64,000 bases of DNA, taken from the NCBI RefSeq assembly GCF_900115955.1, contig NZ_FOYL01000006.1, positions 277,849-341,848 of the forward strand. The letters run 5' to 3'. Each line of letters begins with the position of its first letter. The stretch's first letter is position 1. Positions 47,357-61,541 of this stretch are shown here, piece after piece. This DNA is from Lentzea waywayandensis (GTDB lineage: Bacteria > Actinomycetota > Actinomycetes > Mycobacteriales > Pseudonocardiaceae). A program made the position numbers and the translations under genes. The notes beneath the pieces are model-generated. The model was not told the DNA's origin and made no database searches. It saw only the letters and a program-made list of their open reading frames with translations.

Positions 47357-49639
47357 GTGGGGTGGCCGTTCGTGGGGAGGGACGCCGAGCTCACCGCGGT
47401 CAGGCGTGCGGTGCGCAGTGCCGGGCTGATCGTGGCGGGTCCTGCCGGAGTGGGCAAGACACGGCTGTTGGACGAGGTCGAGTGCGACGTCCGGCTGCGT
47501 GCGACAGCGGCGATGTCGGAGATTCCACTCGGCGTGATGGCGCCCTTCTTGTCATCGGTCGATCCCTCGCCGTTGGCGATGTTGACCGCCGCACGGACCG
47601 CGTTGCGCGATCGCATCGTGGTGGTCGATGACGTTCATCTGCTCGATGACGCGTCAGCAGGACTGCTGCACCAACTCGTGCACCACCGGGAAGCCGTCGT
47701 GGTGGCGACGCTGCGCTCGGGCGAACGCGCGCCGGAACCGGTCGTGGCGCTGTGGAAGGACGAGCTGCTGCCTCGCATCGAGCTCGAGCCGCTCGGACGT
47801 GCCGCGGTCGTCGAGGTGCTGGAGACCGTGCTCGGCGGAGTGCTGGACAGCGCGACGGCCGATCGGTTGTGGACGGCGTCAGCTGGAAACATGTTGCTGC
47901 TGCGAGAGATGCATTTCGCTGCGCAGTGGGTGTCGCACGGCGGCGTGTGGTCGTTGGACGGCCCGCTGCCGTTGTCGCCACGGCTGGTGGAACTGATCGA
48001 GGTTCACCTCGCAGGGGTGCCCGCCGAGGAACGCCGGGTGCTGGAGCTGCTCGCGTTCGGCGAACCGCTGGACCTGGCCGCGTCGGAGGCGTTGGACGGG
48101 CTCGTGACCGTGACCGATGAGGGACTGAGGCTCGCGCATCCGTTGTACGGAGAGGTGTTGCGCGCGCAGTGCCCTCCCCTGCGCAAGCGCAACCATCAGC
48201 GGTACCTGGCTTCCGTGCTCGACGATCCGTTGCGAGTAGCCGTGTTGCGTCTGGACAGCGGTACGGCAGACGATCCCGCACAGCTGCTGAGAGCCGCGAA
48301 TCTCGCCAGCGCGACGGGTGGTGTCGTTCTCGCAGAACGGCTCGCACGTGCCGCATGGTCTGTCGGTGGTGGTGTGGAGGCGGCACGGCAGTTGGCTTAC
48401 GTGCTGGTGTTCACGGATCGCGCGGAGGAAGCCGAGGAGGTCTTCGCGTCGGTGGCGACCGACGACGACCCGATCGAGGTCCGCACCATGCGCGCGATGA
48501 ACCTCGGATGGGCGCTCGGGCGCACCGAGGAAGCCGCGGAGATGATCGTGATGCCAGCGGGCAGGGCCGCGCTCCTGTTCTTCGCAGGCAAGTACGACGA
48601 GGCTCGTGCGCTGCTCTCGGACGCCGATCCGGGTGAGGCGGCGATCCTCGCGATGATCGACGTGGTGCAGGGCAGGTACACGGGGCCGTTCCCGGTCGTC
48701 CCGCCGAATCCCGAGGTCGGTCTGGGCGCCGAGATGAACGCGTTCTCCGAGGTGTTCGTGCACGCCTTGCACGGTGAACTGGCTCGTGCGGAACGTCTTG
48801 CCGTGCAAGCGCATCGGGAGAAGGCCGAGTGGGATTCCATGCGGTCGAGCTGGGCCGTTTCGTGTGCCGGCCTGGCACGGGCGGGTGGCCGTTTGCTCGA
48901 AGCGCGGCGCTTGCTGCGAGAGGCGCGGCCCGTGCAGCCGTTCGTGCGGCTCTGCGAACTGGCCCACGTGGAATCGTTGCTGGGCAACGACGCGCGTGCA
49001 CTGCTCGCTGAAGCGGAAGAGCTGGCGCCGCCAGGAATGCGCCCGTACGGCATCGGACTGTGGCAGGCGCGGATCTGGGCGGGTGGAACGTCGCCGTTCG
49101 AGGCGGCGCAGGACGCTCGGGCGCATACCGAGTTCGCTGCCGAGGCGGTGTTCCTGCACGAGGCCGTCCGGCTCGGACACGCCTCTGACGCCCTCGAAAG
49201 GCTGCGGGAGCTCGCCTCCACGACGACCGGGCTGCTGGTCCCGGTGTACGCCGCACATGCGGAGGCGTTGGTGCGCAACGACTCCGGAGCGTTGGAAGAG
49301 GTGGCCGCGCGGTTCGAGAAGGCCGGGTACGTGCTGTTCGCGGCGGAAGCTGCCGCAGCGTCAGGCAATCGCGCGCTGGCCGGGCGGCTGATCGGCCTGT
49401 GCGAGTACGCACGGACGCCCGCGTTGGCGAGGATGACGCTGACGTCGCTCACCCGCCGTGAGCGCGAAGTGGCCGTGCTCGCCGCACGGGGTCTGACGAA
49501 CAAAGAGATCGCCGAGTCGTTGGTGATCTCCGTGCGGACCGTCGACAACCACCTCTCCAACGCCTACGCGAAGCTCGGCATCACGACCCGCGGTGAGCTC
49601 GCGTTGGTCCTTACGGATGACCTCGGCGGCCGGGGATAA
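47357..49639 (+). CDS. LuxR-family regulator with AAA ATPase domain (LAL type)
   Basis: A 760-residue regulator, short for the LAL group (usually 850-1000). FVGRDAELTAVRRAVRSAGLIVAGPAGVGKTRLLDEV holds the Walker A motif near residue 28; RIVVVDDVHLLDD is Walker B. The middle third is TPR-like helices. The C-terminal HTH is LTRREREVAVLAARGLTNKEIAESLVISVRTVDNHL at about residues 693-728. The GTG has no ribosome site but a -10 box 6 nt upstream. It is divergent from the P450. Confidence 0.92.
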   Translation: MGWPFVGRDAELTAVRRAVRSAGLIVAGPAGVGKTRLLDEVECDVRLRATAAMSEIPLGVMAPFLSSVDPSPLAMLTAARTALRDRIVVVDDVHLLDDASAGLLHQLVHHREAVVVATLRSGERAPEPVVALWKDELLPRIELEPLGRAAVVEVLETVLGGVLDSATADRLWTASAGNMLLLREMHFAAQWVSHGGVWSLDGPLPLSPRLVELIEVHLAGVPAEERRVLELLAFGEPLDLAASEALDGLVTVTDEGLRLAHPLYGEVLRAQCPPLRKRNHQRYLASVLDDPLRVAVLRLDSGTADDPAQLLRAANLASATGGVVLAERLARAAWSVGGGVEAARQLAYVLVFTDRAEEAEEVFASVATDDDPIEVRTMRAMNLGWALGRTEEAAEMIVMPAGRAALLFFAGKYDEARALLSDADPGEAAILAMIDVVQGRYTGPFPVVPPNPEVGLGAEMNAFSEVFVHALHGELARAERLAVQAHREKAEWDSMRSSWAVSCAGLARAGGRLLEARRLLREARPVQPFVRLCELAHVESLLGNDARALLAEAEELAPPGMRPYGIGLWQARIWAGGTSPFEAAQDARAHTEFAAEAVFLHEAVRLGHASDALERLRELASTTTGLLVPVYAAHAEALVRNDSGALEEVAARFEKAGYVLFAAEAAAASGNRALAGRLIGLCEYARTPALARMTLTSLTRREREVAVLAARGLTNKEIAESLVISVRTVDNHLSNAYAKLGITTRGELALVLTDDLGGRG

Positions 49640-49670
49640 CGCTCGGCACGGGTCCGAACGACATTCCGGC

Positions 49671-50816
49671 ATGAGCAACGGGTACGCGGTAGTCGACGTC
49701 GAGACCACCGGACTTTCACCTGGTCAGCACCACCGGGTTAGCGAGGTCGCCGTCGTGCACCTCGACGCGTCCGGCCGCCGGGTGGACGAGTGGTGCACGC
49801 TGGTCAACCCGCGCCGCGACCTCGGCGCCCAGCACGTGCACGGCATCAGCGCCGCGGACGCCCGGCGCGCGCCCGAGTTCGCCGGTATCGCCGGTGAGCT
49901 CGCCGCGAGGCTGTCGGGACGGGTGCTCGTCGCGCACAACCTGTCGTTCGACCTGCGGTTCCTGCGGGCCGAGTTCGCGAGGCTCGGCCACGAGCTCTTC
50001 GCGGAGGGGCTCTGCACGATGAACCTCGCCGGCCGGTATCTCGGTGCCACGTCACGGTCGCTCGCCGCGTGCTGCGAGGTGGCCGGCGTGCCGATGGGCA
50101 CCGCGCACTCCGCGCTGCACGACGCGCGGGCGTCCGCGGGGCTGCTGGCGCGTTGCCTGGACCGCGTCGGGGACGTGGAGCCGGTGCGCCTGACGGTGCC
50201 GCGAACCCTGAACGCGTTCGCCGTGCAGCGCAGTCACCCCCACGGAGCCGAACAGCACTTCCTGTCGAAGCTCGTGCGGCTGCTGCCTCGGGTGGAGACC
50301 GCGTCGGGCGACGAGTACCTCGACGTGCTCGACCGGGCGCTGGTCGACCGGCACCTGACGCTGGAGGAACAGGAAGAGCTGCTCGAAGTGGCTCGTGCGC
50401 TCGATCTCGGCCTGCCGCAGGTGATGGAGCTGCACCGCGGCTACCTCGCCGCGCTCGCCGACGCCGCCTGGGAGGACGGCCGGGTGACCGCGGACGAGGA
50501 GGCGGACCTGCGGCTGGTCGCGTCGTTGCTCGGCGTGGACGTCGCCGGGGTGCTGCGCAGGCCGGTACGGCTCTCGCCGGGTGATCTCGTCGTCTTCACC
50601 GGCCAGATGCGCGAGGGCCGTGACGTCTGGGAGAGCCGGGCGCTGTCCGCCGGGCTCACCGTGAAGGCGGGCGTGACGAAGAGGACCGCGGTGGTGATCG
50701 CGGCGGACCCGGACTCCATGTCGGGCAAGGCGGACAAGGCGCGCACGTACGGGATTCCGGTCGTGTCCGAGGACCTGTTCGCCGGTCTGCTCGGTCAGCT
50801 GAGCGGGTCGGCATGA
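49671..50816 (+). CDS. DEDDh exonuclease with C-terminal BRCT domain
   Basis: A 381-residue protein. Residues 1-170 are a DnaQ-like 3'-5' exonuclease: VVDVETTGLSPG (D, E), VLVAHNLSFDLRFLRAE (D) and AHSALHDARASAGLLARCL (H, D) complete the DEDDh set. Residues about 220-300 form a helical TerB-like region (LEEQEELLEVARALDLG...LADAAWEDGRVTADEEADL). Residues about 305-378 are a BRCT domain (LVVFTGQMREGRDVWESRAL). This suggests repair or end processing. The ATG at 49671 opens the exonuclease domain directly. It is coupled (ATGA) to the next gene and converges on the Wadjet operon. Confidence 0.88.
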   Translation: MSNGYAVVDVETTGLSPGQHHRVSEVAVVHLDASGRRVDEWCTLVNPRRDLGAQHVHGISAADARRAPEFAGIAGELAARLSGRVLVAHNLSFDLRFLRAEFARLGHELFAEGLCTMNLAGRYLGATSRSLAACCEVAGVPMGTAHSALHDARASAGLLARCLDRVGDVEPVRLTVPRTLNAFAVQRSHPHGAEQHFLSKLVRLLPRVETASGDEYLDVLDRALVDRHLTLEEQEELLEVARALDLGLPQVMELHRGYLAALADAAWEDGRVTADEEADLRLVASLLGVDVAGVLRRPVRLSPGDLVVFTGQMREGRDVWESRALSAGLTVKAGVTKRTAVVIAADPDSMSGKADKARTYGIPVVSEDLFAGLLGQLSGSA

Positions 50817-51298
50817 GCGCGATGGACCGGGTGGCCGCGCTCATCCAGGAACGCAACCGCATCGACGCCGAACTGTCGGCGTGCATCGGGCGGCCCGCGT
50901 TGACCGGGCACCTCGGTGCGTGGATCGCGGCGCAGGTATTCGGCGTCAGCGACGGCAGGCTCGGCGACGGCCGGACCGTGGGCGTCCGGTGGTACACGAA
51001 GCGGGAAGGCCTGCTGGACATGAAGGAGCAGGGACCGGACTTCTACCTCGTGCTGGCCGGGCCGAAAGCCGAGCCGGTCGGTTCCCGTGGCACGACCAGG
51101 CCGTTGGTCGTCGACGCGGTCTACCTGTTCGACGCGGCGACCGTGGTGGCCGACCTCCGGTCACGTGGCGTCAAGATCAGCACTCAGGCCAGCGTGCGCA
51201 CGGAACTGTGGGACGCCGCGGAGATCTACCCGCGGCGCAACCCGTCGTTCCAGCTAACTTCCGAGCAACGCGAACTGCTGGCGTTGTTCGGAAGTTAG
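50813..51298 (+). CDS. Hypothetical protein, DUF6998-like
   Basis: A 161-residue protein starting MSAMDRVAALIQERNRIDAEL, followed by GRPALTGHLGAWIAAQVFGV, GVRWYTKREGLLDMK and RPLVVDAVYLFDAATVVADLRSRGVK. From memory this resembles the DUF6998 family, with a restriction-fold-like look (alpha/beta with conserved E and K), but that is uncertain. It overlaps the exonuclease/BRCT gene by 4 bp (ATGA) and jetC by 4 bp at their 3' ends, so it is squeezed between a repair-like gene and a defence operon. Confidence 0.7.
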   Translation: MSAMDRVAALIQERNRIDAELSACIGRPALTGHLGAWIAAQVFGVSDGRLGDGRTVGVRWYTKREGLLDMKEQGPDFYLVLAGPKAEPVGSRGTTRPLVVDAVYLFDAATVVADLRSRGVKISTQASVRTELWDAAEIYPRRNPSFQLTSEQRELLALFGS

Positions 51299-54200
51299 TC
51301 ATCGGCCGTGAGGCTGTGCCCGTCCCACGTGAAGCGCACGGTCGTCACGGCGTCGTCTCCGTCCGTGCCGGTCGTGAGCTGGTGGATGGCGATGCCGGTC
51401 AGCTCCCGGTAGTCGCACCACTCGTGGTCCGACGTGAGCACCAGGTCCAGGTCGAAGTTGACCAGCAGTTCCAGCAGCTGGCCCCGGTTGGTGGCGTCGA
51501 CGCCGACGAAGACCTCGTCCAGCAGGATCAGGCGGGGTGCGGTCGGGGTGGCGTGGTAATGCGCGGCCGCCGCGGCGAACAGCGGGAGGTGCAGCACGAT
51601 GGCCTTCTCGCCGCCGGACAGGGCGCCGTGCACCCGTTTGGTGACCGGGACCCAGCCTTCGCCTCTGTCCACCTTCACGACGAACTGGTGCCACGTCGTG
51701 TAGTCCAGCACCTGGGCGAGTTGTTGTTCCCAGCCCGTTGCGGAGTCGTGCGCGCGTGCTTCTTCCACGCGCTCGCGGAAGAACTGGTGCAGCAACGCGC
51801 GTTCGTCGTCGTTCAGGTCTGATCGCAGCAGGAGATCGCGGGCCTCTCGGGTGCCCGGCGGTAGCTGGGGATCCACCTGCCAGTCGAGCTGCACGCGGAT
51901 GCCGGACGCGGTTTGGACGCGCTCCAAGCGTTGGTTCATGGTGCCGACCAGCTCGGAGGCGCCCTGGATGCGTTGGGCGATGTGCCTGCGCGTGTCGCCG
52001 GTGAGGGTCTGGTCGAAGAGGTCGCGTTCGACGTCCGTGATGTGCGTGCACACGCGGTCGCGTTCGGCCTGCAACCTCTGAAGCAGGGCGTGCGCACCCA
52101 TGCGCACGCCGTCCAGCGTTGCGGTCAGAACCGTGACGTCGTCGTCGGGGTCGAGCGACAGGTCGATGCGGCCTGCCAGTTGCTGCCGGGCCTGGTGCAC
52201 GGCGAGACCGAGGCGGGACTCGAAGTCGCGGATCAGGCGCGGATCCACGATGTCGTCGGGCACCTCACCGGCGTCGGCGGGCAGGTGGCCGCTGGTCAGA
52301 TGCCGGTAGCGGGCATCGGCCGCGTCACGCGCGACAGTGGCTTCCGCGGCACGTGCGGTGTCGGTCTTGCGCTTTTCCTCCAACGTGCCGAGTGTGCGCG
52401 CCAGACCGGTTTGCTTGTCCTGGAGCGTTTCGCGTTCCTCGGCCAACGTGAGCGCCTTGGCGCGCAACGTGATGAGCTGCTGGTCGAGGGCGTGGAACTC
52501 CGAGCCGGCGGAACGTTCGACGGTCTCCAGCGTGATGGCGAGGTCGGCGGCTTCCTGGTGACGGGCTGCCGACGTCTCCTCGGCCTCGTCGGCCAGCGCG
52601 CTGCTCACCGACGCACGGTTGCCGGCGTCGATCGACAGCGCTTCCGCGGCGAAGGCGTCGTGACGGTCGTCGAGCCAGCAGTGGCCCGTGCTGCCGAACG
52701 CGGCCAGCACCTCCAGGTCGGGCACCTCGGTGCTCAGGGTGTGCCGGGCGACGGCGGCCTCCGCGTCGGAGACCCGCCTGGTCGCGGCCGCGACGGCGTC
52801 CTTCCTCGCCGCGCACCGCAGCTGGGCCTTCGTGCGCTGGTCCTCGGCGATCTCGATCGGGTCCGCCGAGGGTTGCCGGGCCAGTTCGCCGGCCAGGGTC
52901 GCCCGGCGCACCGCGATCTGGTTCAGCGCGGCGTCCACACCGGACAGATCGGTGGCGAGCTGTTCGATCAGCCCGGTGAGCTCGGCGATGCGGCCCGCGC
53001 GGGCGCGTTTGCGCGCGTCGGCGCCGATGTAGGTGGGGAAGGGCTTGGTCCAGCGGCCGTGCGCGTTGGCCAGGCGCCACGTCCCGTCCGCGCCGATCGC
53101 GACGGCGTGACCGGTGGCCGTCTCGCCGAACGCGATGCCTTCCAGGAACCGGTAACAGCGCTCGTCGTCGGTGACGAGCACCTCCAGCAGCGTGTAGCCG
53201 GGAGCGGGAGGCGCCAGCGTCGGTTCCACGAAACGGTCCTGGTTGGGGAGACCGAACGAGTTGTCCGCCGCGAGCCACGCGTCGAGCAGGCCCGAGGCCT
53301 CCAGCGCCGCCTCGACCGCACCGCACACGGCCGTGGGCGTGCCGGGGCGGAAGTCGACCAGACGCCACAACGGAGCGCCTGCGGCGGAAACGCGGTAATC
53401 GTCGGCGCGTGTGTACGGCGCGGGCGGCGGCACGTCGACCTGGTTGGCGAGCTTCTCGCGGATGGAGTTGTACTGCGCGAGCTGGCCGTTCAACGCCGTG
53501 CGCGTCTCGTCCAGGCGCGCCTCGATGCGGCTGAACTCCTCGCGGGCGAGAGCGGCGGCCTCGACGATCTCGCTGTGTTCGGACACGTTCAGCTCGGAAC
53601 AGCCGTGCGCCCACGTCTCGAAGTCCGCGCCGAACTTCGCGAACGCTTGGTCGAACGCCTGCTGCGCCGCGACCTCCGCCTCCGTGGCGAGGTCGAGCTC
53701 GTCACGGGTTTCCTCAAGGCGTTGGCGTGCGGCGTCCCGTGCGTCGACGACCCTCTCGTGCGCGGCAACGGCACGCATGATCGAGCTGATCTCGGTGGAA
53801 CGGGAGTCGACGGCGGCGGTGAGCAGCTGCCGTCCCGCCCGCGCGTCTGCGCCCGACTCGATCTCCTCGAACACCGACCGCATACCGGCGTGCTCGGCGG
53901 CTTCCCGTGCGATCACGACGGAACGCCGCAGCTCATCGGCGCGTGCGGCCGCGTCCGCCTTTGCCTGCCCGGCCTGTTCGTCGTCGGCAACGGCCCGTGC
54001 GCGCAGTTTCGCGGCGTGCTCGGCGGCCTCCGACGCGCGCAGGGTCGCGGCGGAAAGCTGCTGCCGCAACAGGTCGAGCTGCTTGCCCTCCTGGTAGGCG
54101 GGCAGGTCGGAGATGCCGGAGATCTCCGCGTCGACCGCGCTCGCCTCGCGTCCCAGCGCCGCGAGCTGGTCGAACGCCTCGTCGGTCAGCGTGATCTGGC

Positions 54201-55068
54201 GCTGGTAACGCCGTTCGCTCATCCGCGCGGCCCGCGTCAGGTCCTCGAGCTGTTCGGTCGACGACTCCAACGCCCTTGCGGCCACTCCAAGAACGCGCTG
54301 GGCGTAGACGCGCTGCACGTCCGCGAGCCGTTCGGCGGTGGTGATCTCCTCGTCGAGCCGCCGCAGCCCCTCGCGCTGACGGTCGAGCCGTTCGAACCCC
54401 TCGGCGATCTCGGTCAGATCGGACTGGTCCAGCGGCGGAAGTGCCTTGGACAGCAACGAGGACAGCACGCTCGGGTCGAGCCGCTCGGACAGCTTCGGCG
54501 TGCGCAGCTGAAGCAGCGCGGTGATCAGCGAGTCGTACCGTTGCTCGGTCACGCCGGGGAACAACGTTGTCCGCACCGTGTGGCGGTAATCGGCCGGTGA
54601 GGCGTGCACAACGCCGTGTTCACCAATCGCCGCAACGAGATCGGTCTTGGTCAACGGGCGCCCGGCCTCGTTCACCAGCGCCAGATCGCCGACCCGCAGC
54701 GACGTCGTGAAGTACGTGGCCGAGACGTTCGACGTGTTCGTGGTGGCCTGAAGCCGCGCACCGCACGTGAACCACTGCTCGCCGTGCTGGAACTCCAGCC
54801 ACACGTACCCGACGCGCGTGCTGCCCTGGTTGCCCTCGCCCATTAGGTTCCAGTGCATCGTGCGGTCCGCGCTGCCGAACGTCGACAGCCGGTGCGGACG
54901 CAGGTTCGCGTCGAACAGATACGGCAGCAGCAGCTCGAGCGCCTTCGACTTGCCCGTGCCGTTGGGACCCCGGAGCAGCAGTCTGCCCTGGTAGAACGAG
55001 AAGATCTCGTCGTAGTAGCGCCAGACGTTGATGATGCCGGCGCGGCTGGGTTGCCACCGGTCAGTCAT
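51295..55068 (-). CDS. jetC: Wadjet JetC: SMC-like ATPase (TIGR02680 family)
   Basis: A 1257-residue SMC/MukB-like ATPase, the motor of the Wadjet anti-plasmid complex. The N-terminus (MTDRWQPSRAGIINVWRYYD) leads to Walker A GPNGTGKSK near residue 35. Two long coiled coils (about 290-500 and 720-980) flank a hinge region. The C-terminal signature motif is ALSGGEKAIVLHLPLF, and Walker B is LILLDEVFVGVD. The complex extrudes loops of circular DNA and JetD cleaves it. The ATG at 55068 has GAGGAG and overlaps jetB by 8 bp. The gene appears intact. Confidence 0.93.
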   Translation of the reverse strand: MTDRWQPSRAGIINVWRYYDEIFSFYQGRLLLRGPNGTGKSKALELLLPYLFDANLRPHRLSTFGSADRTMHWNLMGEGNQGSTRVGYVWLEFQHGEQWFTCGARLQATTNTSNVSATYFTTSLRVGDLALVNEAGRPLTKTDLVAAIGEHGVVHASPADYRHTVRTTLFPGVTEQRYDSLITALLQLRTPKLSERLDPSVLSSLLSKALPPLDQSDLTEIAEGFERLDRQREGLRRLDEEITTAERLADVQRVYAQRVLGVAARALESSTEQLEDLTRAARMSERRYQRQITLTDEAFDQLAALGREASAVDAEISGISDLPAYQEGKQLDLLRQQLSAATLRASEAAEHAAKLRARAVADDEQAGQAKADAAARADELRRSVVIAREAAEHAGMRSVFEEIESGADARAGRQLLTAAVDSRSTEISSIMRAVAAHERVVDARDAARQRLEETRDELDLATEAEVAAQQAFDQAFAKFGADFETWAHGCSELNVSEHSEIVEAAALAREEFSRIEARLDETRTALNGQLAQYNSIREKLANQVDVPPPAPYTRADDYRVSAAGAPLWRLVDFRPGTPTAVCGAVEAALEASGLLDAWLAADNSFGLPNQDRFVEPTLAPPAPGYTLLEVLVTDDERCYRFLEGIAFGETATGHAVAIGADGTWRLANAHGRWTKPFPTYIGADARKRARAGRIAELTGLIEQLATDLSGVDAALNQIAVRRATLAGELARQPSADPIEIAEDQRTKAQLRCAARKDAVAAATRRVSDAEAAVARHTLSTEVPDLEVLAAFGSTGHCWLDDRHDAFAAEALSIDAGNRASVSSALADEAEETSAARHQEAADLAITLETVERSAGSEFHALDQQLITLRAKALTLAEERETLQDKQTGLARTLGTLEEKRKTDTARAAEATVARDAADARYRHLTSGHLPADAGEVPDDIVDPRLIRDFESRLGLAVHQARQQLAGRIDLSLDPDDDVTVLTATLDGVRMGAHALLQRLQAERDRVCTHITDVERDLFDQTLTGDTRRHIAQRIQGASELVGTMNQRLERVQTASGIRVQLDWQVDPQLPPGTREARDLLLRSDLNDDERALLHQFFRERVEEARAHDSATGWEQQLAQVLDYTTWHQFVVKVDRGEGWVPVTKRVHGALSGGEKAIVLHLPLFAAAAAHYHATPTAPRLILLDEVFVGVDATNRGQLLELLVNFDLDLVLTSDHEWCDYRELTGIAIHQLTTGTDGDDAVTTVRFTWDGHSLTADD

Positions 55069-56131
55069 TGAGCTCCTCGACCGCGTACCTGGCTGCGGCG
55101 GGCAGCCTGTGAACGGTGCCGTTCTCCGTGCGAGCGAGCCCGAACATGTGCAGCAGTTCGAGCCCGTCCGCCGCGAGTCTGCCCGCGCCACCGTCCGACT
55201 GGTAGGCGTTGGCCCACGTGCGGAACTTCGTGAGCAGCTCGCGTGTTTCCTCGACCAGATCCTCGGTGGCCGCCGGACCTTGTGCCAACCGGTCGAGCAA
55301 CAACAACGCGGCGACCTTCGCGTTGTTGTCGTCGTCCGGGAACCTCGTGTCCGTGGCGATCGCATCGGCGTCCACCACGAGATAACCCTCGGCGCGTTCC
55401 TCCAGCGTGCAGCCGGCGAGCCCGATGCCCGTCTGGACGACCTTGCGCCCGGCCGGTGAGGCCAGGAACGCGAGTTGGCTCGCGTTCAGCTCTTCCTTGT
55501 AGACCACGGGATCGTCGATGAGCCTGCGCATCACGGAGTGCCGTTGCCACAGGCTGCGATGCGCGTTGTCGTAGCGGGTCTCGCGGGTGAGGTCCGCGAT
55601 CGTGTCCACTGTGGAGGGCGGGACCGGCGCGGCGAGAAGGCGCGTGATGAGCGTCGGGTCCGCGCGGACGTGCTCGTCGGTCTCGACCGCGCCGTGTTCT
55701 TCGAGGAACGTCAGCACGTCGTTGAACGCGTTGCGGTCGCTGCGCCTGGCCGGGTCGAACTGGATGCCGTCAGTGGCCGCGTGCTTCGTGCGCGTGGTCA
55801 GCTCGTCGAGCGTCATCGTCGGCGTGGCCAGCAGTTCCGCGCACACGAGACACAGCAGGATGTACCGCCGCCGGTCGAACGCCGGTCGCGTGCGATCAGG
55901 CCGTTGCGTGGTCTTGAACAGACGCGCGTATCCGGCGCGTGGCTCGACGTGCACACGCCAGCCGCAGTAGTAGTCGAACCACTTCACGATCGGTTCGCGG
56001 CGCCTTCTGATGAGGTCGAACCCGTCGTGGTCCAGCCTCGCGGTCAGCAACGGACGCGCGAGCAGCAGACGAACACCACGCGCCACCTCTTCGCTCTCCA
56101 GCCGTGCGAGCTGGTTCCCCGTGCGGCTCAT
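55061..56131 (-). CDS. jetB: Wadjet JetB: kleisin-binding WHD subunit (TIGR02678/DUF2398)
   Basis: A 356-residue subunit, the MukE-like KITE protein of the complex. KWFDYYCGWRVHVEPRAGYARLFKT and RRRYILLCLVCAELLATPTMTLDEL are its typical blocks. TLEERAEGYLVVDADAIATDTRFPDDDNNAKVAALLLLDRL follows in the second winged-helix domain. The ATG at 56131 overlaps jetA by 4 bp (ATGA). It links the JetA kleisin to JetC heads. It appears intact. Confidence 0.92.
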   Translation of the reverse strand: MSRTGNQLARLESEEVARGVRLLLARPLLTARLDHDGFDLIRRRREPIVKWFDYYCGWRVHVEPRAGYARLFKTTQRPDRTRPAFDRRRYILLCLVCAELLATPTMTLDELTTRTKHAATDGIQFDPARRSDRNAFNDVLTFLEEHGAVETDEHVRADPTLITRLLAAPVPPSTVDTIADLTRETRYDNAHRSLWQRHSVMRRLIDDPVVYKEELNASQLAFLASPAGRKVVQTGIGLAGCTLEERAEGYLVVDADAIATDTRFPDDDNNAKVAALLLLDRLAQGPAATEDLVEETRELLTKFRTWANAYQSDGGAGRLAADGLELLHMFGLARTENGTVHRLPAAARYAVEELND

Positions 56132-57528
56132 CGGCTCTGCACGTCGATCACGTAGTCGGGCCCGCTCAGCGTGCCCTTCTGGGTGGTCATGGTCGCCCAG
56201 CCACGCGCGTTGCGCAGGTTGATCTGCATCCGCCCGTCACTCGTGCCGGCGGTGCGCGTGCCCGTGCTGTCCGGATCGCTGCCGAGCGCCCGCCCGACCA
56301 GGTCGATCAGCCGGTGGAACGTGTCGTGGTCGAGGTTGGTGAGCGTGGAGATCCGGACTGCTCCGTCGGTCTGGATCTGCGACCAGGCGTATTCGAGCTC
56401 CTCGCGTTCCTTCTGCGCCCGTTCGCGGCGGTTGCGGCGCACCTCGTCGACGTTGCGGACCTTGCCGGTGGCGCCGATGTGCTCCTGCTTGCCGGTAGCG
56501 CGCAGCTGCGGCGACACGGGCACCGGCGGCGTGTTGTGCCACGCCTCGCCGCTCGGCATCAGCTCACCGTCGGCGTGCGCGAGGTGCGCGTGCCGAGCGG
56601 ACCACAGCCCGAACGCGGCGTTGAACAGCTCGTGCGCCTCGTCCTCGGTCTCGGTCCTCGCGAACCACCGCGCCAGCGCCCGGAAGTCCGCCGCTGTGTT
56701 CGTCGGCTTGCGCTGCTCGCTGATCCGGTCCAGCACCCGGAGCAACTGCACGATCGCCTTGCGCGACACGTCCTGCAGTTCGTCGACGCGCGGCGGGTTG
56801 TCGTGAAACCAGCTCTTGAGGCTGCTCCAACGCTCTTTGCGCTGCTGAAGCCACAGCTCGTCGTGGAGGAGGCCGGCGCCGTTGCGCGCGCGTTCGTGCA
56901 GCTCGGTCGCGTCGATGCTCGCGATGGTGTCGCGGATCTTCTGCTTGCGCGCGTCCAGGTCCGCGATGAAGTCGCGCAGGTAGGTGACCGTCGTGCGCTT
57001 GACGTCCTGGAACGTGGCGAGGTCGGTCTGCTCGTCCCTCAGGAGTCTTTGCAGGTCGGCGTTGAACCGCGTCGTGCCGGTCTCGAAGGCTTCGAGGTGA
57101 CCTTCGAGCTGGGTGAGCGTGGTGAAACTGCCGCGGTCGTCCAGCGGCCTGCTCAGGTTGTCGAGGTGGGTCGCGATCGCGTCGAGCACCGCGGTCTGCA
57201 GCGAACCGTTGCTGCTGAGGGTGTCGAGCGCCTGTTTGACGCCCGCGAACGCGGCCTCGCCGAGCTTGGTGAGCCCGTAGCGGTTCTGCGTCGCGTCCAG
57301 CAGGCCCCACCCACGGAGAGCGTTGAGGGACGCCTGGAGCTCGTCGTCCGTCACCTGCTCGGACCAGCCGACGGAGCGGAGCCGTTGCTGCACGTCATCG
57401 GCCGTGAGGACGGTCTGCAGGCGCTCGTTCGCCACCCCGAACACGCGCATCACTGCAGTGTGCAGCTCCGCGTGGGCGGTCGTGGTGAAGCGGAACAGGT
57501 CCGCGGGCACCCGTGGAAACGTCGTCAC
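56128..57528 (-). CDS. jetA: Wadjet JetA: kleisin-like subunit (TIGR02677/DUF2397)
   Basis: A 466-residue kleisin (MukF-like) subunit. VTTFPRVPADLFRFTTTAHAELHTAVMRVFGVANERL is the family N-terminus with a winged-helix domain. FNADLQRLLRDEQTDLATFQDVKRTTVTYLRDFIADLD is the central helical bundle. The GTG at 57528 is chosen because TACGGT (minus strand, 57536-57541) ends 7 nt upstream, which fits a leaderless operon start; the GTG at 57537 would lie within that box. It is the first intact gene of the jetABC operon and follows truncated jetD by 54 bp. Confidence 0.92.
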   Translation of the reverse strand: MTTFPRVPADLFRFTTTAHAELHTAVMRVFGVANERLQTVLTADDVQQRLRSVGWSEQVTDDELQASLNALRGWGLLDATQNRYGLTKLGEAAFAGVKQALDTLSSNGSLQTAVLDAIATHLDNLSRPLDDRGSFTTLTQLEGHLEAFETGTTRFNADLQRLLRDEQTDLATFQDVKRTTVTYLRDFIADLDARKQKIRDTIASIDATELHERARNGAGLLHDELWLQQRKERWSSLKSWFHDNPPRVDELQDVSRKAIVQLLRVLDRISEQRKPTNTAADFRALARWFARTETEDEAHELFNAAFGLWSARHAHLAHADGELMPSGEAWHNTPPVPVSPQLRATGKQEHIGATGKVRNVDEVRRNRRERAQKEREELEYAWSQIQTDGAVRISTLTNLDHDTFHRLIDLVGRALGSDPDSTGTRTAGTSDGRMQINLRNARGWATMTTQKGTLSGPDYVIDVQSR

Positions 57529-57535
57529 CTGTGCC

Positions 57536-57541
57536 ACCGTA
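57536..57541 (-). promoter_or_regulatory. -10-like box of the jetABC operon
   Basis: TACGGT on the minus strand, 7 nt before the jetA GTG. It suggests that jetABC has its own leaderless promoter and can be expressed independently of the jetD remnant. No convincing -35 was found. Confidence 0.45.
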
Positions 57542-57582
57542 GCTGGCGTTGTAGGGCTTTCGGGTGACAGGGCGGGCGGCTA

Positions 57583-58425
57583 TCAAGACGACAGATCGTT
57601 CAGGAGGTCGTCCAGCACGAGTTCCTCCTCGATACGACGGTTCGTGTGGCTCATCGCCGTCGCCAGAGCAGGATCCCAGCGTGCTTCGACCGGTGCGCCG
57701 GTCAGCGGACGGCCCTCACCGGCAGCGAGGTAGGACGCGGTGTCGAAGCGCCACGGCGTGAAAGGCACGCGATCGTGCAGCACGTTGGCGATGCGGACGC
57801 CGCCCCAGTCGAAGTCGCCGTGGTAACGCAGGGTGCCGTGCGCGGAGACGATCAGGCGGAGCAGATGCATCACCGCGGCGCTGGGCTGACCGCTGGTGCA
57901 CACCAACGGCGGGCAGGACGGCCCGAGGTGGTCGGCCGCGGTCGCCACGACGACCGGGTTCTCGCAGACGAACACGTCCAGTGCGGCCAGACGTGGAGGA
58001 TCACGGACGAGCTGGCGCAGGGTGAGGTGCACCGGTTGACCTAGCCACGCTTCCAGGCCTTGATGGCCGCCGAAGCCCAGGGTGATGACCGTGGTGGACA
58101 GCTCGTCGCGCATCAGGCCGACCGATGCCCACACCTCTCGACGCCATTCGGCGCCGCTGCCGTCCGGCAGACCGCTCAGGACGCGTGCGGCCCGAAGTGC
58201 CAGCGTCGCCAACGGACGATCATCGTCCAATGAGTGGGCATCACCGGTTAGTCGTGCGGCGAATCGTCCGATCGGCTCGCCGGGCGACGGCAGGTTCGTC
58301 ACGACGACGTTCACCTTGGTCAGCAGGTCGGCCGCGGCCTGTGGAGTGGCAGTGAGGCGTTTGACCAGGCCGCTCAGACGCAGCGAGAGTGCCCACGAAG
58401 CGAGACGTGGATCGTCCAGCTGGTC
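57583..58425 (-). pseudogene. jetD: Wadjet JetD (TIGR02679/DUF2399) with missing N-terminal part
   Basis: About 280 C-terminal residues of the Toprim nuclease JetD. The Toprim core is intact: VFVCENPVVVATAADHL holds the catalytic Glu and TLRYHGDFDWGGVRIANVL the Asp-x-Asp. DPRLASWALSLRLSGLVKRL is the first recognisable JetD sequence. Upstream the same strand is antisense to an inverted DUF2786 fragment, so roughly 100-130 N-terminal residues are gone. The frame stays open to a GTG at 58623, but the extra 65 residues are not JetD. Internal initiation could still make a Toprim-only protein. It lies upstream of jetA, whereas jetD usually follows jetC. Confidence 0.8.
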
Positions 58426-58818
58426 GGTGAGTCGATGGACCTGGAGATCACCGAGCTGCTGGCCACCTCGCTGCTGGTCCAGGCCACCCGTGCGATGGTG
58501 GCCGAAGGCAGCCAGGCCACTCGGGCCGGAACGTCTCGCACCCGGTCGTTCCGGCAGTCCTTCCCGGTCTCGTACGCCACGCGCATCGGGGAACGGCTGG
58601 GCGAGGCCGGTGTCCTGGCGCACGATCCGGTCGAGGACGAGCGACTGTTGCCAGTGCTGGCCGAGCGGTCACGAGTGGTCGAGGAGACGTTCGACAAGAT
58701 GTTCAGCGATCTCGTCCACAGGTCGGCGACAGTCACCAACGGTGCCAGGTGGGAAGCGGGCCGGGCGGCCGCCGATCGCGCGGACATCACTGTCGGGCGC
58801 CAAGCCGTTGACGCCTGA
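58408..58818 (+). pseudogene. 3' fragment of a DUF2786-type gene, inverted against jetD
   Basis: About 137 codons (WIVQLVGESMDLEITELLATSLLVQ to the TGA at 58816) align with the C-terminus of the complete DUF2786 gene at 43026-44090, whose matching part is FVALVGDEVDLESVELLSTSLLVQ and onward. The DUF2786 core is absent. The fragment begins where jetD homology stops, so one breakpoint at about 58408-58425 destroyed both genes. Confidence 0.8.
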
Positions 58819-59061: not shown

Positions 59062-59508
59062 TCACACCACCGGGTTCTTGTCGCGGAACATGCGGAACGT
59101 GATGAAGAGCGCGACTACCGGAATGCCCATGAGGGACAGCATGTACGCGACCTTGTTCGGGTCTCTGCGTTCGGCGAGCGCCCACTCCGCGCTCGCCTGG
59201 GAAGACCGCCCGGAACGTACGCGGTTGTTGGTCATCGGCACGCGGTTGCCGATGTCGGCTGGCGTGAGCGAGGAGTTCTTGTTGCTGTACGGGTACTGCC
59301 TTCCATCGTCAGCGACGATGGTGGCATTGCAATGCCAGAGGGCGCCAAAGGCCCACCAGTTGCGTGCGCACGAGATTCTCTCCGCGTAGCCCTTCGGATC
59401 GCCGCCTGAGCCAGCTTCGCCGTCGAAGAACAACGTGCCTGCGTGGGCGGTGTACAGGGCGACGATCCAGAGAACGGCGGCGATGGCGATCCGCCTCGGT
59501 TTGGTCAC
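59062..59508 (-). CDS. Small membrane protein, possibly DUF6346
   Basis: A 148-residue protein with membrane segments at both ends (IAIAAVLWIVALYTAHAGTLFF and VAYMLSLMGIPVVALFITFRMF). The loop between them has cysteines in SCARNWWAFGALWHCNATIV. From memory it fits DUF6346, seen in Pseudonocardiaceae. It overlaps the WXG/PPE-like gene by 4 bp, so it belongs to that ESX-accessory operon. A decayed copy follows. Small membrane proteins downstream of ESX substrates sometimes give immunity; this is inference only. Confidence 0.75.
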   Translation of the reverse strand: MTKPRRIAIAAVLWIVALYTAHAGTLFFDGEAGSGGDPKGYAERISCARNWWAFGALWHCNATIVADDGRQYPYSNKNSSLTPADIGNRVPMTNNRVRSGRSSQASAEWALAERRDPNKVAYMLSLMGIPVVALFITFRMFRDKNPVV

Positions 59509-60794
59509 GAGCCTTCCTTGTGGCCGCCGCCTTCAGCCTTGTTCAGCTCTTTCGACAGTTCCTTCGCCGGATGGACGAGGTCGCCCCAGTTCGGCATCAG
59601 GTGGCTGATGTCCCTGCTGGACACCGCGCGCACCCAGTTCTGGCCGTCGAGCAGGCCCTTGCTCATCGGCGCGTCCACCCGGTCGGCTGCTCGGCCGAGG
59701 CCGGACTGGGGGTCGCCCATGTTCTCCTTGCGCGTGGTCAGAGGGGGCTGGTTCATCGTCTCGTAGAAGTCCTTGACCGCCTGCTTGCGAGCCGGGCCGT
59801 TCTCCTTCACGCGGGCTGCCCAGTCGTCGACCTTCTGGGTGGTGCGCTGGGCGATGTCGTCGACTTTGTTCATCGCGTTGTCGACACCGTCTTGGATGCG
59901 CCTGCTCGCGTTGCCGAGGCCGTCACCGATGTTGTCGAGAGAGTCGGCCCTGGACACCCTCGTTGCCGAGTCGGAGGCGAGCTCTGCCGCCCGCTGGTTG
60001 CCGTAGCGGCTGTTCGGCATCTGCCTGCTCAGGGCCGCGAGGTCGTCGGCTTGCTTGCGCATCGCGGTTGCGGCTTTCTTCGCCAGCGAGCCGAGCTTGT
60101 CCAACGCTTTGAACAACTTGGCGACGAACCGGGCGATCTTGGTGCCGATCTCGACTGCCTTGGTGACGGCTCGGGTGATGAAGGCCGCGATGGAGGCGCC
60201 CGCGGTCGGGATCGCCGACGCAGCGGCCGGAATGCCCCACATCAGCAGGGTGCCTGCCAGGTCGGCCAGCAGATCGCGAATCAGCGCCCTGGTCGCGGCG
60301 ACTACCGCGCCGGCCACCTTGATCTTGTTCGCGGCGGACGAGGCGGCGGCCGCCGACCCGCGGAGTTGCGCCGCGAGATTGGTGCAACGGGTGCCATAGG
60401 CATCGGCGGCGTCGCCCGTCCACTCGACGAGCGTCTTGGCATGGGACTCGTAGGCGTTGGCCTCGTCGCTCAGGCGTTTGGAGATGTTCTCCCAGGTGGT
60501 GCCGATCGCTTCGATGGCCGGTGGATCACCCATGAGCTTGTCGAACGGTTCCCGGATGAAACCGACGTTCTCGATGATCCAGCCCACGACCGACGAGGCC
60601 AGCGTGCCCAGCGGGTCGGTGAGGAAGCCGGCGACGTCCAGTGCCAGCGCGGCCCCGTCGATGCCCAGCGCGACCGGATCGATGGTCTTGCCTTCGGCGA
60701 AGGGCATGACCAGGTCCTCGGCGGTGTCGAACATGCCTGCGCCGGCGAGCCGCTTCTTGTCGTCTTCCTTCTGCGCGACCAAGGGATTGCTCAT
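59505..60794 (-). CDS. WXG100/PPE-like ESX-associated protein
   Basis: A 429-residue protein with the helical-hairpin region of type VII secretion substrates at about 95-150 (TWENISKRLSDEANAYESHAKTLVEWTGDAADAYGTR, with W-T-G). Hydrophobic Ala-rich helices (TLLMWGIPAAASAIPTAGASIAAFI) and a long helical region follow. The C-terminus (GDPQSGLGRAADRVDAPMSKG onward) is polar and carries no toxin domain I can name. The ATG at 60794 overlaps the EspC-like gene by 4 bp. It may be secreted or be a scaffold for a toxin. Confidence 0.82.
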   Translation of the reverse strand: MSNPLVAQKEDDKKRLAGAGMFDTAEDLVMPFAEGKTIDPVALGIDGAALALDVAGFLTDPLGTLASSVVGWIIENVGFIREPFDKLMGDPPAIEAIGTTWENISKRLSDEANAYESHAKTLVEWTGDAADAYGTRCTNLAAQLRGSAAAASSAANKIKVAGAVVAATRALIRDLLADLAGTLLMWGIPAAASAIPTAGASIAAFITRAVTKAVEIGTKIARFVAKLFKALDKLGSLAKKAATAMRKQADDLAALSRQMPNSRYGNQRAAELASDSATRVSRADSLDNIGDGLGNASRRIQDGVDNAMNKVDDIAQRTTQKVDDWAARVKENGPARKQAVKDFYETMNQPPLTTRKENMGDPQSGLGRAADRVDAPMSKGLLDGQNWVRAVSSRDISHLMPNWGDLVHPAKELSKELNKAEGGGHKEGS

Positions 60795-61092
60795 CGGTCC
60801 ACCCCCTGTATGGCGGCGCGGTTGCCTTCTTCGGCCTGGCGGTAGGTCTCAGCCGTCGAGCACAACTCGTCACCGGTTGCCTCGAAGGCCTTGGGGAGGG
60901 CGGCGAGAAGGGCCTTGGCGTCGTCGAGCTCCTCGTTGAAGATCCACGACCACGCTTGGCAGAGTTCACCCATCACGTTCGGACCGAGGCTCGTCTGGGA
61001 GGCGGACACTGCCTCCTGCAGGGCGAGACCTGGCCGACGAGCATCTTGCCGTGGGCGGAGACGGTCTCGGCCTGGGTCTGGAAGCCGGTCAT
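60791..61092 (-). pseudogene. EspC-like ESX protein gene with a frameshift
   Basis: The ATG at 61092 overlaps the YbaB stop (ATGA) and encodes MTGFQTQAETVSAHGKMLVGQV. The remainder of the protein (ALQEAVSASQTSLGPNVMGELCQAW to GVDR) lies in another frame up to the stop at 60791. One base is missing at about 61026-61031. Correcting it gives 100 residues, the usual size of an EspC/WXG100 protein, and full coupling to both neighbours. It may be a real mutation, a sequencing error or programmed slippage. Confidence 0.75.
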
Positions 61093-61541
61093 CGCAGCAC
61101 CGAGTTTCCGCCGAAGTCGTCTTCATCGCCCTGTGGCGGTGCGGGACGCCCTGGCGCGGGCTTCGGTTCCTCGACCGTGCCCGCCGGGTCGATGACGGCG
61201 ATTCCCTGTTCGACCTGTTCGCGCAGGAAGGCCATGCCTTCGCCGTCACCGAGGATAGGACGCATCGTGTCCTCGATCTTGCGGGCGGCCTCGACCTGGG
61301 CGCGGCGAATGGTGTCCATGATCGTGCGGCCCAGTGCTGTGTGGCCCAGGTCGTCGGCGCGCGGAGTCAGCTGGAGCGACTCGATGCGGCCGCCTGATCC
61401 GACGGTGATGATGACCGAGCCGTCCGGGCTCTGGGCTTCTGTGCGGGACTCGCGGAACGCGGTCTGAATGGCATCGGCCTGTTCCTGGGCTTGCTGGAGG
61501 CGCTGTTCGAAGCTCACGAGATACTGGTGCGGATCGGTCAC
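61089..61541 (-). CDS. YbaB/EbfC family protein of an ESX-accessory operon
   Basis: A 150-residue protein with the YbaB/EbfC nucleoid-associated fold: VSFEQRLQQAQEQADAIQTAFRESR is the first helix and GSVIITVGSGGRIESLQLTPRADDLG the central sheet. The C-terminal 40 residues are a Pro-rich tail. YbaB-like proteins head ESX-accessory operons (YbaB, EspC, WXG/PPE) in many actinobacteria, as here. The GTG at 61541 lies within an inverted repeat CGATC-GAAT-GATCG (61541-61554) shared with the divergent gene. Confidence 0.85.
   Translation of the reverse strand: MTDPHQYLVSFEQRLQQAQEQADAIQTAFRESRTEAQSPDGSVIITVGSGGRIESLQLTPRADDLGHTALGRTIMDTIRRAQVEAARKIEDTMRPILGDGEGMAFLREQVEQGIAVIDPAGTVEEPKPAPGRPAPPQGDEDDFGGNSVLR

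What the first reader, a model, noticed from the sequence alone, without database searches (positions are those of the whole stretch)
51295..58425. Type II Wadjet locus with jetD first and truncated
The sequence shows intact jetA, jetB and jetC (kleisin, KITE and SMC-like subunits), each overlapping the next. The JetD Toprim nuclease gene lies upstream of jetA and lacks its N-terminal arm. In known systems D follows C. A Wadjet that keeps loop extrusion but has a shortened nuclease could be inactive, or could act without cleavage. The separate jetA promoter suggests jetABC can still be expressed.
Basis: partly seen in the sequence, partly recalled or inferred. Interest (0 to 1): 0.82.

Follow-up and report, generated by a model that had tools for sequence, protein, structure and literature searches.

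The report
Plasmid-cutting complex that dropped its nuclease
In the soil bacterium Lentzea a DNA-looping defence complex is kept intact although its DNA-cutting partner is gone; the cut-short nuclease gene beside it is a leftover of a different, neighbouring defence operon, and a second genus has lost the nuclease independently, which suggests that these motors now do something other than cut plasmids.

Summary
In detail: intact type II jetA, jetB and jetC on the minus strand, preceded by a jetD that has lost roughly its first quarter. The interpretation needs changing. (1) D-first order is ordinary. (2) The truncated jetD was never this jetABC's own nuclease: it derives from a second operon, A'B'C'D, still complete upstream in four of 24 Lentzea genomes. 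The window shows a deletion scar (about 58,420) fusing the jetD remnant to the tail of a DUF2786 gene. (3) None of the 23 Lentzea genomes that keep jetABC has an own jetD for it, yet jetABC is intact in 22 and under purifying selection, while the neighbouring A'B'C'D was lost about 12 times on the tree. (4) A separate Amycolatopsis clade (18 genomes) also has intact jetABC without an own jetD; 13 of the 18 have no JetD-family match anywhere. (5) The one JetD present in all 24 Lentzea belongs to yet another Wadjet and has lost its Toprim acidic residues (22 copies aligned). Best reading: type II Wadjet motors repeatedly converted into nuclease-free SMC complexes, probably acting on DNA without cleavage. 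A precedent is proposed for P. aeruginosa MksBEF. The function is inferred, not shown.

The parts
51295..55068 (-). jetC (SMC subunit, 1257 aa); Walker A GPNGTGKS, signature LSGGEK and Walker B LILLDEVF intact
   Evidence: TIGR02680 939 bits; PADLOC JetC2; start MTDRWQPS shared with relatives; motifs in 23 of 23 Lentzea rows
55061..56131 (-). jetB (KITE subunit, 356 aa)
   Evidence: TIGR02678 224.5 bits; open in 21 of 21 related Lentzea loci extracted
56128..57537 (-). jetA (kleisin, 469 aa, GTG start)
   Evidence: TIGR02677 346 bits; GTG start shared with 20 of 21 relatives
57583..58421 (-). jetD remnant: C-terminal part with the Toprim ENP and GDFD motifs; about the first 105-110 of 388 residues are gone; relic of an A'B'C'D operon
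   Evidence: TIGR02679 positions 87-382; full-length 388-aa relatives; kinship with C'-linked jetD
58409..58421 (.). deletion junction joining the jetD remnant to the DUF2786-gene tail
   Evidence: blastn breakpoints; sequences side by side, about 2 bp in common at the join by eye
58419..58818 (+). 3' tail (about 130 aa) of a DUF2786/DUF7168 gene that is 448 aa in L052; its 5' part was lost in the same event
50813..51298 (+). convergent 161-aa ORF of unknown family overlapping the jetC end; found in many but not all Lentzea loci
49593..50816 (+). exonuclease-domain protein (RNase_T) with a weak BRCT match, convergent neighbour, not found in all relatives
47357..49639 (+). LuxR-type regulator that marks the shared chromosomal site (19 of 21 Lentzea jetABC loci)

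Best explanation
This is a chromosomal type II Wadjet motor (kleisin JetA, KITE JetB, SMC ATPase JetC) that has no nuclease of its own and has been kept that way throughout Lentzea. The truncated jetD in front of it is the decaying end of a separate A'B'C'D Wadjet operon that once lay directly upstream; a deletion removed A'B'C' and the start of jetD and also cut into a DUF2786 gene. Shown: gene content, ancestry of the jetD remnant, absence of an own jetD in the clade, intact ATPase motifs, purifying selection, a second D-less clade in Amycolatopsis. Inferred: the complex still hydrolyses ATP and extrudes or bridges DNA, and now serves a purpose that needs no cleavage, most likely as an extra condensin on the chromosome, as proposed for MksBEF of P. 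aeruginosa; holding or silencing plasmids without cutting is the main alternative.
For: Full-length jetD beside jetABC in 4 of 24 Lentzea genomes, in each as A'B'C'-D-ABC with jetD (388 aa) overlapping the C' stop by 4 nt. Remnants in 6 of 24, nothing recognisable upstream in 13 of 24, jetABC itself broken in 1 of 24. The remnant in G011, of the deepest Lentzea branch, is of the same D type, and G014 keeps a jetA' piece 93% identical to A'. D relatives outside the genus follow a C' gene (57-79% identical to C', 32-40% to this JetC) in 22 of 22 readable loci. jetABC open in 22 of 24 Lentzea (21 loci plus the window; not G011, G020). Two separate D-less clades, 23 Lentzea and 18 Amycolatopsis rows, each with SH-aLRT 100 and nested among D-bearing relatives. 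In 13 of the 18 Amycolatopsis genomes no TIGR02679 match at E 1e-3 and no PF09664 match over the cut-off. dN/dS of A, B and C: eight pairs without own jetD 0.025-0.315, four D-bearing pairs 0.110-0.251. On the Lentzea tree full A'B'C'D-type jetD was lost about 12 times while jetABC stayed (Dollo count, tree as drawn). The kleisin ScpA is also present (8 of 8 genomes tried), so this is probably an additional complex.
Against: No functional data. 'No own jetD' rests on family matches and on surroundings of some 5-10 kb; an unrelated nuclease elsewhere is not excluded. The remnant jetDs show dN/dS 0.12-0.17, hardly above the full-length ones (0.11-0.12), as expected if truncation is recent, or if the fragments still have a use. 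In 4 Lentzea genomes a full jetD adjoins jetABC and could serve it. The tree was made with a quick method, with warnings on long branches, and some forks used for counting losses are weak. G011 has a split jetC and G020 a broken jetABC. Smc and ScpB were not searched.
Confidence: 0.62

Rival explanations
1. JetD is supplied in trans or shared: jetABC uses the jetD of the neighbouring A'B'C'D operon or of another Wadjet in the genome.
For: Four Lentzea genomes have A'B'C'-D-ABC on one strand; in three Amycolatopsis loci (L205, L206, L221) an A'B'C'D-type jetD lies about 3.5-6.3 kb upstream of the D-less jetABC on the same strand, and in a fourth genome (G160) about 10.5 kb from jetB.
Against: 10 Lentzea genomes have no JetD match other than the divergent contig-C10-type one, whose Toprim residues are lost in all 22 Lentzea copies aligned; 13 of 18 Amycolatopsis genomes have no TIGR02679 match at E 1e-3.
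Confidence: 0.1
2. jetABC is a dying remnant of an ordinary Wadjet that has lost its nuclease and is on the way out.
For: The jetD next door is decaying; G020 has a broken jetABC, G011 a split jetC, and a related locus (L197) has a broken jetC without jetD.
Against: Open frames in 22 of 24 Lentzea, ATPase motifs in 23 of 23 and 18 of 18 JetC rows, low dN/dS in pairs without own jetD; old clade (JetC down to 71% identity to the window's within it). A D-bearing relative (L224) has a split jetC as well.
Confidence: 0.08
3. jetABC still restricts plasmids or phage DNA without cutting, by extruding and compacting small circles so that they are not expressed or inherited.
For: Type of motor and its preference for small circles in cleaving Wadjets (passages of PMC10586767); the same paper treats Smc5/6 as acting on viral DNA, with a legend, seen in part, that speaks of preventing viral gene expression.
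Against: Shared chromosomal site and presence in 23 of 24 genomes of the genus look like a housekeeping gene set; no direct test.
Confidence: 0.25
4. A non-homologous effector encoded next to jetABC has replaced JetD.
For: An exonuclease-domain gene and a 161-aa ORF lie convergent to jetC in many Lentzea.
Against: Neither is found in all Lentzea loci, neither has a match in the 38 loci of the Amycolatopsis and other set, and of the genes called in one Amycolatopsis locus (L189), jetABC apart, only one, a 450-aa ORF found in 5 of 18, also matches Lentzea loci (5 of 21).
Confidence: 0.07

Closest known systems
Wadjet type II (JetABCD; TIGR02677, TIGR02678, TIGR02680, TIGR02679)
   Same: JetA, JetB and JetC families, gene order and overlaps; PADLOC type II models; only solved relatives by sequence are JetC and JetA of 9qe0/9qe1
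   Different: No own JetD nuclease in the Lentzea clade; the adjacent jetD is a relic of another operon
MksBEF of Pseudomonas aeruginosa
   Different: That complex is described as MukBEF-like; this one matches the DUF2397/DUF2398 type II families, and the loss here happened at least twice in actinobacteria
MksBEFG of Corynebacterium glutamicum (Wadjet type I)
   Same: Actinobacterial SMC-kleisin-KITE complex beside Smc-ScpAB
   Different: Has its nuclease MksG and acts on plasmids, not on the chromosome (passages of PMC10123090 and PMC7083940)
A'B'C'D type II Wadjet of Lentzea and other genera of the family
   Same: Same four families; source of the jetD remnant
   Different: 33-34% identical to the window's A, B and C, A-B-C-D order, complete nuclease, complete in only 4 of 24 Lentzea

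Membership tests
Wadjet type II | JetA (DUF2397), JetB (DUF2398) and JetC (TIGR02680) present and complete | tested here: met
Wadjet type II | Complete JetD nuclease encoded with jetABC | tested here: not met
   Adjacent remnant lacks profile positions 1-86 and is of A'B'C'D descent; the other JetD of the genome belongs to another Wadjet on contig C10
Wadjet type II | Toprim active-site residues in JetD | tested here: met
   ENP and GDFD remain in the window remnant, but on a fragment from another operon; the C10 JetD lacks them
Wadjet type II | Restriction of small circular plasmids by cleavage | not testable with these tools
   needs an assay
MksBEF-like nuclease-free condensin | SMC, kleisin and KITE without nuclease, ATPase motifs intact | tested here: met
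MksBEF-like nuclease-free condensin | Sequence membership of the MksB/MksE/MksF families | tested here: not met
   Best matches are the type II families and no Mks-named model is among the hits; PADLOC also lists JetC1 at 1.9e-15 and JetB1 at 8.7e-5. No separate Mks model was searched
MksBEF-like nuclease-free condensin | Role in chromosome organisation | not testable with these tools
   needs deletion, ChIP-seq or Hi-C

The most novel reading that the evidence does not exclude
Type II Wadjet has been turned into a nuclease-free SMC complex at least twice (Lentzea, Amycolatopsis) by loss of jetD, and in Lentzea and another genus of the family (group g8) a third complex has taken another route: its JetD is kept under purifying selection but its Toprim catalytic residues are gone (Glu to Arg or His, DxD to DxT or DxS). 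In Lentzea both genus-wide Wadjet complexes would then be non-cutting, so the anti-plasmid motor is a recurrent source of new chromosomal or silencing condensins.
Probability: 0.5. Interest if true: 0.78.

Novelty: new variant of a known kind. Interest (0 to 1): 0.62.

Why it matters
[quoted passage not shown] Here the step is seen in repeated form: neighbouring clades with and without jetD, decaying jetD remnants, and a motor that outlives its nuclease. That makes it testable in soil bacteria what a Wadjet motor does once it can no longer cut.

Tried and rejected
Order as the oddity: rejected, D-A-B-C and A-B-C-D are both common. Frameshift instead of truncation: the three minus frames above 58430 were read by eye and the upstream 2.5 kb searched with full-length JetD; no N-terminal part was found. 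A substitute effector shared by the two D-less clades: no gene common to most loci of both (genes of one Amycolatopsis locus, called by a simple script). Loss of a JetD docking site: of columns conserved in D-bearing relatives, Lentzea has lost 32 of 228 in JetA and 23 of 163 in JetB, against 13 of 239 and 9 of 168 in a D-bearing control clade, but in JetC 24 of 442 against 28 of 459; four smaller control clades lost 0-5 per protein. Much of the Lentzea loss sits in a few contiguous stretches; the Amycolatopsis clade lost 13 of 228, 3 of 163 and 8 of 442 (JetA against JetC p 0.009). Suggestive only. Plasmid search with the junction: no match. Structures: no PDB relative of full-length JetD or of JetB by sequence. 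Literature: the listings (10 of 16 shown; 12 of 511 shown) gave no title or abstract start on a nuclease-free type II Wadjet or a JetD without Toprim residues; passages of four papers were read. Most subscription papers are not held.
Full report
Observation. The four genes lie on the minus strand in the order D-A-B-C, at about 58421-57583, 57537-56128, 56131-55061 and 55068-51295, with short overlaps between A, B and C. They match TIGR02679, TIGR02677, TIGR02678 and TIGR02680 above the curated cut-offs and the PADLOC type II models. The JetD match covers profile positions 87-382 only. Full-length JetD of this type in Lentzea is 388 aa, so about the first 105-110 residues are missing; the Toprim motifs ENP and GDFD remain.

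Nature of the truncation. DNA similarity to the jetD of L041, L047, L048 and L050 ends at window 58420-58421; from 58409-58419 on, the sequence matches the 3' part of a + strand gene in L037, L045, L052 and L053. In L052 that gene is 448 aa with DUF2786 and DUF7168 domains. Both genes lost their 5' ends at one point, which is what a deletion gives; about 2 bp are common at the join by eye.

Relatives in the genus. Named contigs show that the genus is Lentzea. All 24 genomes searched have JetC over the TIGR02680 cut-off. The window's jetABC is found in 23 of 24, with JetB 71-92% identical to the window's in the other 22; in the 24th, G020, it is broken. In the 21 loci the site is shared: LuxR-type regulator in 19, the exonuclease-domain gene in the other two; the surroundings of G011 were not checked for this. 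jetA, jetB and jetC are open in 22 of 24: 21 loci plus the window; G011 has a split jetC. A full-length jetD adjoins jetA in 4 of 24 (G001, G007, G009, G015), a remnant in 6 of 24 (G000, G005, G011, G014, G018, G019), nothing recognisable within about 2.5 kb in 13 of 24.

Whose jetD is it? In the four genomes with a full-length jetD another type II set, A'B'C', stands directly upstream, and jetD overlaps the C' stop by 4 nt in all four. A', B' and C' are 33-34% identical to the window's A, B and C. Outside Lentzea the 23 best returned loci of this jetD type (52-65% identical) were examined; in the 22 where the upstream gene could be read it is a C'-type SMC gene, 57-79% identical to C' against 32-40% to the window's JetC. 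By contrast, the proper relatives of the window's ABC (L058, L109, L110, L112-L115, L117, L119) carry another jetD, 39-44% identical to the window's, although their A, B and C are 47-62% identical to the window's. So the remnant is the end of an A'B'C'D operon. G014 still has a jetA' piece (93% identical to A') in front of its jetD remnant, and the remnant in G011, from the deepest branch of the clade, is closest to this D type, 71% over 28 residues. A'B'C'D was therefore probably present in front of jetABC in the ancestor; counted that way, full-length jetD was lost 12 times on the tree as drawn, some forks being weak.

Two nuclease-free clades. A tree of concatenated A, B and C (78 rows, quick method, LG+G4, with long-branch warnings) puts the 23 Lentzea rows in one clade (SH-aLRT 100), sister to four A-B-C-D loci including Saccharopolyspora, and 18 rows of genus group g11 in a second clade (SH-aLRT 100) nested among D-A-B-C loci. 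g11 is Amycolatopsis by the equal contig length of G187 and A. xylanica. Of the 39 non-Lentzea loci read, 18 form this clade, 15 have a jetD next to jetABC (7 D-first, 8 D-last) and 6 have none complete, two of these running into a contig end. In 13 of the 18 genomes TIGR02679 has no match at E 1e-3, nor in two further relatives, G180 and G165; G161 has one very weak match. PF09664 has no match over its cut-off in those 15 genomes; 11 of the 15 show hits at E 0.2-0.8, as do 6 of 14 control genomes below the cut-off. Five of the 18 have a JetD: in G122, G120 and G131 it lies about 3.5-6.3 kb upstream of jetA behind a C'-type gene, in G160 about 10.5 kb from jetB, in G171 about 1.5 Mb away.

Selection. 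dN/dS by a Nei-Gojobori script on 18 pairs: eight pairs without own jetD 0.025-0.315 for A, B and C; four D-bearing pairs 0.110-0.251; the other six (remnant, mixed, or with A'B'C'D adjacent) 0.070-0.268. Walker A, signature and Walker B motifs are present in all 23 Lentzea and 18 Amycolatopsis JetC rows (one Walker B missed by the pattern is MILLDEVF). The motor is thus maintained without its nuclease. jetD pairs with a remnant show 0.12-0.17, full-length pairs 0.11-0.12, so the truncations are recent or the fragments are not free of constraint.

The other JetD. Each of the 24 Lentzea genomes has one more Wadjet (in the window's genome at C10:53028-62047) with JetC over its cut-off in most, JetA just below its cut-off and a divergent JetD. 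In the 22 Lentzea copies aligned and in 8 copies from genus group g8 the Toprim glutamate is Arg (29) or His (1) and DxD is DxT (29) or DxS (1). The two remaining Lentzea copies (G011, G020) were not in that alignment but also show DxT; the G011 copy is broken. Eighteen more distant copies keep DxD, 7 of them also the glutamate. This JetD is under purifying selection (0.124-0.277, 8 pairs), and its JetC has the ATPase motifs without a stop in 20 of the 20 loci tested; the copies of G002, G011, G012 and G017 were not tested. Ten Lentzea genomes with intact jetABC have no other JetD match than this one, which makes supply of an active nuclease in trans unlikely there.

Mechanism. For type I Wadjet, JetABC extrudes the plasmid and JetD cuts when extrusion is complete (passages of PMC12647877 and PMC10586767). 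With the motor kept and the cutter gone, the simplest inference is an ATP-driven DNA extruder without cleavage, as in MksBEF of P. aeruginosa, which likely lost JetD and contributes to chromosome organisation (PMC10586767 passages). ScpA is present too (8 of 8 genomes tried). Whether the D-less complex acts on the chromosome or silences circles cannot be decided from sequence.

Limits. Presence and absence rest on family models and on 5-10 kb of surroundings; genomes are drafts in part; the non-Lentzea loci read are a chosen part (39 of 84); the function is not shown.

Noticed in passing
L034 8023-9048 (own genome C10:61022-62047) and L226-L255: The JetD of the second, genus-wide Wadjet has lost the Toprim glutamate (Arg or His) and the second aspartate of DxD (Thr or Ser) but is under purifying selection: a conserved pseudo-nuclease JetD. 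11 of 18 more distant relatives have lost the glutamate while DxD is kept.
   Followed up: partly
L205, L206, L221 (Amycolatopsis group) and L035, L041, L043, L048 (Lentzea): In both genera an A'B'C'D-type Wadjet lies just upstream of the nuclease-free jetABC in some genomes. Why the same two kinds of complex meet twice is unexplained.
   Followed up: no
JetB of Lentzea loci, window about 55.9 kb: Most Lentzea JetB lack an arginine-rich stretch (RRxRSxRAP) that is conserved in D-bearing relatives, and JetA lacks a conserved stretch near residues 74-94 of the Saccharopolyspora protein; G017 still has most of the JetB stretch.
   Followed up: partly
window 59062-61541 minus: A cluster with a PPE/WXG100-like 429-aa protein (sub-threshold matches) and a DUF6346 protein; DUF6346-like ORFs recur several times next to jetABC in some Lentzea (L038, L049, L051, L053). 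Perhaps a variable secreted-effector region; not tested.
   Followed up: no
L196, L197, L199 (Amycolatopsis group): Further states: jetD pieces in front of jetABC (L196), a broken jetC without jetD (L197), jetABC without jetD (L199).
   Followed up: partly
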